Of a DNA stretch of 64,000 nt, positions 6,297-46,281 are shown one piece after another; within the stretch, counting starts at the first letter, position 1, and each line of letters opens with the position of its first letter. The stretch comes from Dermanyssus gallinae (taxonomy: Eukaryota; Arthropoda; Arachnida; Mesostigmata; Dermanyssidae). Made by a program: the position numbers and the translations under genes. The stretch covers positions 1 to 64,000 of the forward strand of contig QVRM01002079.1 in assembly GCA_003439945.1 (NCBI GenBank), given 5' to 3'. The notes under the pieces are model-generated. The model was not told the origin of the DNA. It searched no databases and saw only the letters and a program-made list of their open reading frames with translations.

Positions 6297-6349
6297 CATG
6301 CATATATATATATATATATATATATATATATATATATATATATATATAT
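6297..6349. repeat. (TA)n microsatellite
   Basis: Uninterrupted (TA)n of about 50 bases; left flank of a GC-rich block. Confidence 0.95.
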
Positions 6350-6608
6350 GTATAGTGCTTCGGCGCCACGGCAGGAGTCAAACCGCTGAACCTTGCTTCG
6401 CGTTCGGTGCTGTCCCAGTGTGTGTCTGGAACGTTTGGTACTTGTCTTTCACCCAGCTGTCGCCATCAGAGCGGACCCGGGCGGATCCCGACACTGCTCA
6501 CGGTTCGACTAGACATTCCGTTGCTTTTCTGACTTCGTAACAGCACCGGGCGCCTAAAAACTCGCGTATTGTGGAGACGTGGCGGGTTTTTGGCGTTTGA
6601 CGACTACA
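6350..6608. other. GC-rich block enclosed by (TA)n on both sides
   Basis: About 260 bases of unrelated, GC-richer sequence lie between (TA)n at 6297-6349 and (TA)n at 6609-6653. I recognise no coding capacity or RNA. The setting is the same as that of the U2 fragment, the R2-like tail and the SINE elsewhere in this window, so an insertion of a retroelement end into a TA tract is an inference. Confidence 0.45.
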
Positions 6609-6653
6609 CATATATATATATATATATATATATATATATATATATTTATATAT
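6609..6653. repeat. (TA)n microsatellite
   Basis: Separates the GC-rich block from the U2 fragment; one ttta interruption. Confidence 0.95.
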
Positions 6654-6655
6654 CT

Positions 6656-6712
6656 ATCGCTTCTCGGCCTTTTGGCTAAGATCAAAGTGTAGTATGTGTT
6701 CTTATCAGCTTT
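6656..6712 (+). pseudogene. U2 snRNA 5'-terminal fragment
   Basis: The 57 bases begin exactly at the U2 snRNA 5' end (ATCGCTTCTCGGCC...) and follow it through the stem I region and the branch-point recognition sequence GTGTAGTA to CTTATCAG. I see one inserted A in the AAG of GATCAAG, one C-to-G change after GTAGTAT and a small change before TTTA. The match stops near U2 position 57, where U2 itself reads TTTAATAT, and (TA)n takes over. The Sm site, stem-loops III and IV and snRNA promoter elements are missing, so this is a truncated copy and not a functional gene. Confidence 0.93.
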
Positions 6713-6742
6713 ATATATATATATATATATATATATATATAT
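6713..6742. repeat. (TA)n microsatellite, 3' side of the U2 fragment
   Basis: Starts at the point where U2 similarity ends, with a possible shared TTTATAT junction. Confidence 0.9.
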
Positions 6743-43565: not shown

Positions 43566-43863
43566 TTGATTCCGCGACCGTCATTAGCAGTGCCCTTGTG
43601 CGGGCCCGGGGGCCATGGATGTTCGGCAGAATCTTGGCTATAGCACACACTGCCTTGGCTGCTTTTGTCGTTGCCTTTTTATGTGGCTGAGGCCATTCAT
43701 CGCAGTATCCAGTGTGACCCCGAGATAGCGGACTTCCTTTACAATTTTAATATCCTCGCCGTCGAGCTGTAGAGTGAGCGGACGGATCTTCTTTCTCCCT
43801 GTGAGGAGTATTGCTTCGCTCTTTTCAGGGGCAAGTCTGAGTCCCGCTGCGCTCATCCACTCT

Positions 43864-44021
43864 TTTTTTTCTTCTGGGAGGTTTCGGGAATGCATGATGC
43901 ACATGCGCCACTAGCAGCCTGCGTGACTAGTGTGAGACTCGCAAACCCACTAAACCCGGATTCCTCCCCACCCCCCCAGGCTCGGTATTACTTTCGCATT
44001 ACATCGAAATGCCCCCAAAAT
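43864..44021 (-). mobile_element. 158-bp SINE-like insertion with 13-bp target duplication
   Basis: The 13-base direct repeat GCTCATCCACTCT occurs at 43851-43863 and 44022-44034 and corresponds to the LINE codons for S-E-W-M-S, so the insertion splits the reverse transcriptase frame at that point. The insert (minus strand) begins ATTTTGGGGGCATTTCGATG, contains GGGTTTAGTGGGTTTGCGAG and ends CTCCCAGAAGAAAAAAAA. It shares a TTTAGTGGGT word and an A-rich end with the LINE's own tail. The GCATTTCGATG...GCGAAA block resembles what I remember of tick SINEs. Confidence 0.9.
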
Positions 44022-45574
44022 GCTCATCCACTCTGACGTTAGGTAAACAGCTTTATTCATATTTAGTTCAAGTTCGTCGGCAGTTTTAGCCTGCACGACT
44101 ATCGCCAGGTCGTCGGCATAGGCTACTGTGTCCACTCCTTTGGGCAGGCCTGTCAGACGGAGGACGTCGTCGTAAGCCAAATTCCAGAGAAGTGGGCCAA
44201 GTATAGACCCCTGCGGGACCCCGGCTGTCATTTGGAAGCTGACCTGGCCGTTGACAACTGTTCGTGCTTTAAGGTAGCTAGAAATTACGTTTACCAGATA
44301 CGAGGGGACTTTTTTGCGTATCAGTGTGTCCAGAATTGTTTTCCATGGTAGACTGTTGAAGGCGTTCTTAACGTCTAGGAGAGCGACTAGGAGGAGCTGC
44401 CGTGTCTGTATAGTGGAACTTCGTAACGAATCCGCCCTACTTGCAACGCGTTGTATTGCAGTTAGGACTGACCGGTTCTTGCGGAAGCCGTATTGTGTGT
44501 CCGAAAGCAGGCCGTGTTCATCTGCGAAGAGCCTCAGTCTTTCTTCAATTATGGCCTCGTATCCTTTTGCCAGCGCACTCAGCAGGCATATCGGTCGGTA
44601 TCCCCCGTTTCCCTTGGGAATGAGGACGACTTAAGCACGCTTCCAGGATAGCGGAAAAGTGCCGCTTTTGAGTAAGACATTGAAAGAGTCCGCAACTATC
44701 TCAAGGTGCTCTGTAAAGAGAAGTTTCACTGCCTCAGGGGGAACCCCGTCTGGTCCGGGGGCTTTTCCGGTCTTTTGCCTGTGAGCTGCGCGTATAACCT
44801 CGTAAGGTTCAATAGACGGAAACTCGGCCTCACCTTCCAGCCCGGGAATGTTCTCATAAATTGCCCTTTCGGAAGGTGCGTGGGTCGGGAACAGCTTAGT
44901 TAGTACCGTCTTGGTTTGCTGTTCGTCCAGGGAAACAGGGGTCTTTTTTTTATTACCCCTGACTATGTTGTAAGGTTTTCCCCAGGGATCGTCCTCGACC
45001 TCGATGAGGAGCTTTCTATGGCCGCTAGTCTTACTGTCGGCTATGGCTTGCTTAAGTAAGGCCCGGCTTCTTCTATACTCTTGCAATTCTTGATTGCGTA
45101 CGTCTGCGTCTCGTTGTTTCAGTTTGAGAGCACGCCTTGCTTTGCAGCACTCTTTTCGTTTGTCTGCGATCTCCTGCGTCCACCAATATTTAGGCAGGAC
45201 GTTCCCTCGCCTGGGGTGAGCGCTGTTGGTACACGTTGTCTTGCACACCTCTACAAGGAGTGCTTGTAGATCTTCTGCAGTTATGTGGGGGCTGGATAGG
45301 GCTTTTATTTTCCTCCCGAGTTCTTTCTTGAACCTTGACTCGTTTGTGAGTCTGAATCGCTCCTTAAGGGGAGGAACTGATCGAAAGTTTTGAATTCTCA
45401 GTCGAGTCTCAATGCAGAAATGGTCGCTCAGGTTTTCCTCGTCCACTAGAACCTTCCAGCTTATACCTTTTGGCGCGAGGATGTCGTTACATAACGTGAT
45501 ATCCACGTAAGACTCGCTGCCGTGGCGGTGGAAAGTAGCTTCTTTTCCGTCGTTTAATACTTGAAGATCGAGTA
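44022..45574 (-). pseudogene. LINE ORF2: endonuclease end and reverse transcriptase
   Basis: Minus strand, from 45574 downwards. GSESYVDITLCND and EENLSDHFCIE are the last AP-endonuclease motifs (S-x-V-D-x-T and S-D-H). TGKAPGPDGVPPEAVK opens the RT domain, followed by a block with LLDVKNAFNTL (motif A), GVPQGSILGPLLWN (motif B) and YADDLAIV (motif C). The frame is interrupted once, at a TAA at 44631-44633 directly after LSWKRA, and then runs on to the SINE insertion. The first part of the endonuclease is missing, with (TA)n in its place. Confidence 0.88.
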
Positions 45575-45630
45575 TATATATATATATACATATATATATA
45601 TATATATATATATATATATATATATATGTA
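45575..45630. repeat. (TA)n between two head-to-head LINEs
   Basis: About 55 bases with a cata interruption. The R1-like LINE leaves it leftwards, the R2-like LINE rightwards. Confidence 0.95.
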
Positions 45631-46207
45631 TATAAACCATAAAGAGACATGACGACGTCTGTGATCGCGTGGCGCGTCTTCTCCGCGAAAGGGGTCATGA
45701 GGTGGTTCGTGACCGAGTATTCCGTCGACCGGGCGCACCAGGTATAAAGCCCGACCTCGTAATAACAACACCTACCGAGGTCTGGGTTTTAGATGCCGAG
45801 GTTTGCGGCCCGAACCGGGACCTGGCAAAAGCACGGCAAGACAAGATCGCCAAATATGACGTCGAGTTCCTAAGAGCGGCGCTCCCCTACCCGCAAAAAC
45901 CTCGCAGATTCGGATCCATCACTATCTCTATGAGTGGTGTATGGGACTCCGAATCTGCGAGGACGCTCTTGGGGCTCGGCGTCACGAAGAGGAATCTTAT
46001 GGATCTCACCGTTTTAACTTTGCAAGGAACCTTGAGGATATATCGCTCGCACCGGGTCCATAAGAGCGGGGGCTACCATCAAGCAAGGACACGGATAACT
46101 GACTCTTAACTTCACGTGACACCTTTTTACCACCATTTTTATTAAGGCGAGCACTGCCGAGTGTGCAAACGTATTGTAAATGATTAATAAATCATCACAA
46201 TATTTTC
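45631..46207 (+). mobile_element. R2-like retrotransposon, 3' end, TA-flanked
   Basis: The insertion starts directly after (TA)n (TATAAACCATAAAGAGACAT) and ends in ...ATCACAATATTTTCT followed by (TA)n at 46208. It holds the C-terminal restriction-like endonuclease domain of the element's ORF and a 3' UTR of about 100 bases. The reverse transcriptase and zinc-finger parts are absent (5' truncation). The last 60 bases are repeated at 14543, 33781 and 37018, each time touching (TA)n or TA-rich DNA. Confidence 0.88.
45636..46109 (+). pseudogene. restriction-like endonuclease domain of an R2-clade ORF
   Basis: Open from the (TA)n edge to a TAA after 46109. It reads HDDVCDRVARLLRERGHEVV, then IKPDLVI and VWVLDAEV, then KIAKYDVEFLR. 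The K-P-D-L ... V-L-D-A-E-V arrangement matches the PD-(D/E)XK core of R2/R4/Dong-type endonucleases (KPDL...VVDV). These enzymes nick the target site and prime reverse transcription. The piece is intact as a frame but lacks the upstream RT, so it is a fragment of the protein. The GTG at 45669 is not a start. Confidence 0.9.
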
Positions 46208-46281
46208 TATATATATATATATATATATATATATATATAAATATATATATATAAATATATATATATATATATATATATATA
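46208..46281. repeat. (TA)n microsatellite
   Basis: Follows the R2-like 3' end, with two aaat interruptions. Confidence 0.95.

What the first reader, a model, noticed from the sequence alone, without database searches (positions are those of the whole stretch)
6297..46281. (TA)n microsatellites enclose many unrelated insertions
In at least seven places non-repetitive DNA begins and ends inside a (TA)n tract: the GC-rich block (6350-6608), the U2 fragment (6656-6712), the R2-like tail (14543-14600), SINE copy 2 (21061-21284), the foldback elements (37518-39660 and 54832-56029), the R1-like LINE (39835-45574) and the R2-like LINE end (45631-46207). TA dinucleotide targeting explains the mariner-type foldbacks. 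For the retroelements it suggests an endonuclease with (TA)n preference, or microsatellite growth from TA-rich insertion ends. Microsatellite-specific LINEs are known (Dong for TAA; Kibi, Koshi and Waldo for other repeats), but I do not know of a TA-specific R2-clade family.
Basis: partly seen in the sequence, partly recalled or inferred. Interest (0 to 1): 0.78.

Follow-up and report, generated by a model that had tools for sequence, protein, structure and literature searches.

The report
Retrotransposon family that targets TA microsatellites
A very abundant R2-like jumping gene in this animal genome lands mostly in TA-repeat tracts, and about half of the sampled copies are the same roughly 60-base scrap of its tail, so TA repeats act here as landing sites for mobile DNA.

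Summary
Insertions bounded by (TA)n are real in the window, but they are not one phenomenon. The core is an R2-type (restriction-like-endonuclease, RLE) LINE whose 3' tail occurs 7,216 times in the 958.7-Mb assembly (reversed-pattern control 0). In 68 copies fetched outside the window, TA tracts lie at 39 of 52 resolved 5' ends and 49 of 68 3' ends, against 3.8% and 3.6% at random positions of the same loci. Bodies cut at unrelated coding positions abut (TA)n directly, so tract growth from TA-rich ends does not explain the 5' side. The mariner-like foldbacks fit a TA target. The R1-like LINE and the tRNA-SINE are not TA-specific (other window copies lie outside TA). The U2 and GC-block cases are single copies. 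Empty sites, other elements genome-wide and the exact clade were not tested. Verdict: new variant of a known kind.

The parts
45635..46207 (+). 5'-truncated R2-like LINE: end of the ORF (RLE) and 3' tail, TA on both sides
   Evidence: (98.8% to L043 over 571 bp)
45636..46109 (+). 157-aa open frame: restriction-like endonuclease C-terminus (KPD..DAEV..K..KY)
14543..14604 (-). Short tail-only copy, 62 bp, TA on both sides
   Evidence: 95% to the tail
37020..37084 (-). Short tail-only copy, diverged; (TA)n on its 5' side, interrupted TA on its 3' side
   Evidence: 85%
33781..33806 (+). 26-bp R2-like 3' end; (TA)n on its 5' side only
   Evidence: 100% over 26 bp
33708..33780 (.). TA tract upstream of the 26-bp tail
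14477..14631 (.). TA tract split by the 62-bp tail (runs 14477-14543 and 14603-14631)
39661..39835 (.). TA tract between foldback 1 and the R1-like LINE
45573..45634 (.). TA tract between the R1-like LINE and the R2-like end
46208..46281 (.). TA tract downstream of the R2-like end
37518..39660 (.). Mariner-derived long foldback (arms about 960-976 bp), TA on both sides
   Evidence: transposase motif recognised from recall
54832..56029 (.). Second, diverged foldback of the same kind
39836..45572 (-). R1-like LINE, 5'-truncated, A8 end next to TA; not TA-specific as a family
   Evidence: RVT_1; second 3' end outside TA
21061..21284 (+). tRNA-like SINE copy 2, TA on both sides; copies 1 and 3 are not
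   Evidence: tRNA-like head recognised from recall
6656..6711 (+). First ~55 nt of U2 snRNA, exact 5' end, running into (TA)n
   Evidence: 70 bits; the part beyond this stretch is TA or weak
6355..6608 (.). GC-rich block between TA tracts, identity unknown
   Evidence: no second copy in window or fetched loci

Best explanation
The core is one abundant R2-type LINE (C2H2 fingers, RT, zinc knuckle, restriction-like endonuclease) that inserts preferentially into TA microsatellites by target-primed reverse transcription. Shown here: the domains, the copy number, and TA flanks far above background at both ends of copies with different 5' cut points. Inferred: the endonuclease nicks inside alternating TA DNA, the freed end primes on the tail ...CACAATATTTTCT(AT)n, and early ends give truncated copies. 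About half of the sampled copies carry the same ~60-nt tail body; I think the machinery often copies a discrete short RNA whose 5' end lies at (A)AGGCGAGC (inferred). Mariner-like foldbacks reach the same tracts because mariner uses TA. The R1-like LINE, the SINE and the U2 fragment are occasional users of the same tracts.
For: 7,216 tail places, control 0. TA at 39 of 52 resolved 5' ends and 49 of 68 3' ends, both in 27 of 52; background 3.8%, 3.6%, 2.2%. TA run of 8 bp or more at one end or the other in 49 of 55 (three of them window copies), background 500 of 13,264. Bodies cut in coding sequence abut TA (L002, L017, L029, L031). 697 of 2,272 reverse-strand places of a tail 26-mer have TATATATA within 8 bp upstream of the short-form start. 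RLE and RT match R2 proteins. Short form: 34 of 52 at 58-70 bp, 0 shorter, 3 at 71-259, 15 at 260 or more.
Against: 13 of 52 5' ends and 19 of 68 3' ends fail the test. Among longer bodies only 11 of 18 5' ends pass, and both sides in 6 of 18. L068 and L046 have no TA tract on either side. No empty site was seen. SINE copies in the same loci also often have TA (5 of 10 at one side or both), so part of the signal may be a general property of TA tracts. The discrete RNA is not shown; the tail folds no better than shuffles.
Confidence: 0.75

Rival explanations
1. The tracts are made by the insertions: TA-rich ends (3' tail slippage) seed microsatellites, so insertion comes first.
For: The element's 3' end reads TTCTAT in 49 of 68 copies, so a short AT tail belongs to it; LINEs with microsatellite tails are known (recall).
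Against: 5' ends at unrelated coding positions abut TA runs, 11 of 18 among longer bodies; nothing in the element supplies TA there. Copy 33781-33806 has 73 bp of TA on its 5' side and none on its 3' side.
Confidence: 0.1
2. TA tracts are general sinks (easily broken or open DNA) that take up any element or RNA; the LINE has no preference of its own.
For: Mariner-like, R1-like, SINE, U2 and GC-block sequences also lie in TA tracts; SINE copies with TA on at least one side 5 of 10 in loci that are biased towards TA.
Against: SINE copies 1 and 3 and the second R1-like 3' end in the window are outside TA, while all four R2-like ends have TA at the 5' side. RLE LINEs are commonly target-specific (PMC4640811, passages).
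Confidence: 0.2
3. The ~60-bp form is not a separate RNA: the RT stalls or leaves the template at one fixed point of the full-length RNA.
For: Short and long tails have the same consensus; a small hairpin is possible at the boundary.
Against: The boundary is at the far (5') side of that hairpin, where a stall is less expected (inference); the fold is weak (z -1.4).
Confidence: 0.4

Closest known systems
R2 retrotransposons (Bombyx, Taeniopygia, Platysternon; solved structures)
   Same: RT (best 8gh6, E 7e-59), RLE fold, C2H2 fingers, 5' truncation
   Different: R2 is 28S-rDNA-specific (PMC5035012, passages); this one sits in TA tracts with varied surroundings
Microsatellite-specific RLE LINEs: Dong (TAA, passages of PMC3774820), Togen (TG, NeSL-related) and some HERO families (passages of PMC4640811)
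   Same: RLE LINE in one kind of simple repeat
   Different: Different repeat unit; clade relation not tested; no tail-only form seen in the passages read
TA-microsatellite DNA transposons of plants: Ac-mMITE (passages of PMC8449440), Micron and MuTAnT (titles in its reference list)
   Same: (TA)n on both sides, serial insertion with TA between copies
   Different: DNA transposons with inverted repeats, Mutator-like in two of the three; here an RT and endonuclease
BLAG R2-like elements of Blattella germanica (passages of PMC7650587)
   Same: R2-like proteins outside rDNA in an insect, truncated copies
   Different: Described as randomly located; no TA targeting in the passages read

Membership tests
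RLE (R2-superclade) LINE | RT related to R2 | tested here: met
   L043 frame 561 aa: 8gh6 E 7e-59, other R2 chains next; RVT_1
RLE (R2-superclade) LINE | Restriction-like endonuclease PD..D..K after the RT | tested here: met
   Profile match to R2 chains E 3.5e-14; PD, D and K..KY invariant in 7 proteins; Foldseek top 7 are R2 (model mean pLDDT 65, domain part higher)
RLE (R2-superclade) LINE | Zinc fingers in the N-terminus and a CCHC before the RLE | tested here: met
   zf-C2H2 above cut-off; CCHC intact in P0001, last Cys replaced in L043
RLE (R2-superclade) LINE | One uninterrupted ORF | tested here: inconclusive
   L043 has the domains in three separate frames; no intact copy was sought
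R2 clade in the strict sense | Insertion at one 28S rDNA site | tested here: not met
   Flanks are TA tracts in varied surroundings; rDNA itself was not searched
Named clade within RLE LINEs (R2, R4, NeSL, HERO, CRE) | Position in an RT tree | not tested
   Only R2 proteins were available as references
Microsatellite-specific LINE | Copies flanked by one repeat far above background | tested here: met
   39 of 52 and 49 of 68 against 3.8% and 3.6%
Microsatellite-specific LINE | Uninterrupted repeat at empty sites | not tested
   No second individual or relative was available
TA-microsatellite DNA transposon (Micron, MuTAnT kind) | Terminal inverted repeats and transposase origin | tested here: not met
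   The R2-like element carries RT and RLE and has variable 5' ends
SINE (for the ~60-bp form) | A head from a small RNA gene | tested here: not met
   No tRNA, 5S or 7SL match in L043 7850-8060
SINE (for the ~60-bp form) | Discrete short element with fixed 5' end and the LINE tail | tested here: inconclusive
   34 of 52 at 58-70 bp; a stall could give the same

The most novel reading that the evidence does not exclude
A TA-microsatellite-specific R2-type LINE mobilises a discrete RNA of about 65 nt that is nothing but its own tail, giving thousands of retrocopies that would be among the shortest known, a minimal substrate for target-primed reverse transcription; the same machinery sometimes delivers stray RNAs such as U2 snRNA into TA tracts.
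Probability: 0.35. Interest if true: 0.85.

Novelty: new variant of a known kind. Interest (0 to 1): 0.72.

Why it matters
How RLE LINEs choose targets is an open question, of practical interest because R2 proteins are being developed for targeted gene insertion (recall). A natural relative aimed at alternating TA DNA adds a specificity to compare. The uniform ~60-base tail copies suggest how small a template the enzyme may accept. The case also shows how TA microsatellites can become sinks for serial insertions.

Tried and rejected
Relatives elsewhere: one genome-contig scan and three viral-contig scans gave none. The protein searches found one close RLE relative and four more with an alignment, without names or flanks; in the second only the 7,995 candidates sharing most words were scored.

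Ribozyme at the 5' end or at the short-form boundary: Rfam matches on both stretches of L043 were below the families' cut-offs and look TA-driven or chance. Tail RNA structure: no better than shuffles.

A DNA query with the 107-bp tail returned nothing, because common words are skipped; the pattern search then showed thousands.

The forward count (2,450) is redundant, one place being listed for several gap lengths; I use the reverse count (697), whose listed rows give each place once. Of the first 100 places, 40 recur (counted by eye).

Not run: the same count for the LINE-context tail, the SINE, the U2 fragment, an R1-like count and an empty-site search.

Sampling and dropped rows: of 100 places listed, 70 were fetched, in list order except two neighbouring places on C150 that were skipped. 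L011 and L028 were dropped because the sequence around their tails equals that of L001 and L027; L011 may be a separate insertion. That leaves 68; 16 have no resolved 5' end (52 resolved). A few resolved ends (L027, L037, L040) are where the alignment breaks and may not be true ends.

Papers: passages only of PMC4640811, PMC5035012, PMC3774820, PMC8449440, PMC7650587; the rest as search listings. That no TA-specific RLE LINE is in print rests, in an open-access library; for the tail-only form alone.

Full report
What was checked. The window lies in an unnamed assembly of 958.7 Mb and 7,160 contigs. The host is an animal, probably an arthropod: the named matches among the 120 listed for the R1-type RT are insects and spiders. 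Under one fixed test, seven of the eight intervals have TA on both sides and foldback 2 on the left only; random window positions pass a comparable test about 3% of the time. The stretch 37020-46281 is the clearest case: an R2-like tail, a foldback, an R1-like LINE and an R2-like end follow each other with TA tracts between them.

The list is not one thing. The foldbacks end in TACAGGGTG and CACCCTGTA-like sequence and hold a mariner-like transposase remnant (recognised from recall), so a TA target is expected. The R1-like LINE has a poly-A end, and its other 3' end in the window is not in TA. Two of three SINE copies in the window are not in TA. Of ten SINE copies in the window plus fetched loci, four have TA on both sides and one on one side, but those loci are biased towards TA. 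The U2 fragment starts at U2 position 1 and runs into the tract at a UUUAAUAU-like stretch, as if a TA end had primed inside U2 RNA (inference). The GC block has no second copy in the window or the fetched loci.

The R2-like element is the exception. Four 3' ends lie in the window, two unnoticed before; all four have TA at the 5' side. The frame at 45636-46109 is an R2-type restriction-like endonuclease: weak by single sequence (E 0.012), clear by profile (E 3.5e-14) and by predicted fold. The tail pattern has 3,674 + 3,542 places at up to one mismatch; the reversed pattern has none.

Flank test. Of 100 places listed, 70 were fetched (30 with that call, 20 long stretches, 20 short ones). They hold 68 copies after removal of two with identical surroundings. 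TA is present at 39 of 52 resolved 5' ends, 49 of 68 3' ends, and on both sides in 27 of 52. The background, 20,000 positions of the same loci more than 600 bp from a tail, is 3.8%, 3.6% and 2.2%. By class: bodies of at most 70 bp 28 of 34 (5'), 26 of 34 (3'), 21 of 34 (both); longer bodies 11 of 18, 23 of 34 and 6 of 18. A pure run of 8 bp or more touches one end or the other in 49 of 55, three window copies included; background 500 of 13,264. Many failures are interrupted tracts, but L023, L049, L068 and L046 have a plain non-TA flank on at least one side.

Order of events. 5' ends cut at unrelated points of the coding region (L002, L017, L029, L031) abut TA directly. The element supplies no TA there, so the tract most likely came first. 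On the 3' side the element itself ends TTCTAT in 49 of 68 copies, so some of that TA may be its own. Empty sites were not seen.

Element anatomy. The similarity of L036 and L043 begins 3,453 bp before the end of the tail motif in L043, so the element is about 3.5 kb; L043 has a TA tract just upstream, L036 fails the 5' test. L043 shows two C2H2 fingers, an RT and a zinc knuckle plus RLE in three separate frames. The RT is closest, among solved proteins, to Bombyx R2. The clade is open because other RLE clades were not available for comparison.

The short form. Of 52 resolved copies, 34 have a body of 58-70 bp, none is shorter, three lie at 71-259 bp and 15 at 260 bp or more. The body starts at (A)AGGCGAGCACTGCC, often after a few extra bases. 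Short and long tails have the same consensus, with mean identity to it of 96% and 98%. Genome-wide on the reverse strand, 697 of 2,272 exact 26-mer matches have TATATATA within 8 bp upstream of that start; a wider local test gives 3.8%. L016 and L026 hold several short copies in series, in L026 with shared flanks, so duplications are possible there. I favour reverse transcription of a discrete short RNA; a stall at a fixed point is the main rival.

Known kinds. The TA-microsatellite elements in what I read are plant DNA transposons (PMC8449440, passages and reference list). Microsatellite-specific RLE LINEs exist for other repeats (Togen for TG, some HERO families, PMC4640811 passages; Dong for TAA, PMC3774820 passages). 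I found no TA-specific RLE LINE in the searches named under Tried and rejected. So this is a new variant of a known kind, with the tail-only form as its least expected feature.

Noticed in passing
40138-43860: Inside the R1-like LINE a block of about 932 bp is repeated in tandem, up to four copies at 97-100%: a real array or an assembly effect.
   Followed up: no
63514-64000: Minisatellite of 17 bp (TAAGAACGAGCCGGTTC), about 28 copies, reaching the end of the window.
   Followed up: no
22765-24333: 522-aa uninterrupted frame of an aldehyde dehydrogenase (Aldedh E 1.2e-87), without introns over the domain.
   Followed up: no
10477-11686: Long CAA/CAG- and GTT-type triplet arrays on both strands.
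   Followed up: no
36672-36905: 12-bp repeat CTGCGGGGGATG, about 19 copies.
   Followed up: no
L016 1382-1523; L026 1501-2744: Several short tail copies in series within TA tracts.
   Followed up: partly
L027 and L028 (contig C58): Two copies about 22 kb apart on one contig with the same sequence around the tail; L027 also has an internal duplication.
   Followed up: no
L024, 3' flank of the tail: The tail runs into sequence that matches an inverted part of the same LINE.
   Followed up: no
58000-59460: A second R1-like LINE on the minus strand, with a 146-bp R1-like 3' end inserted in it at a non-TA site.
   Followed up: partly
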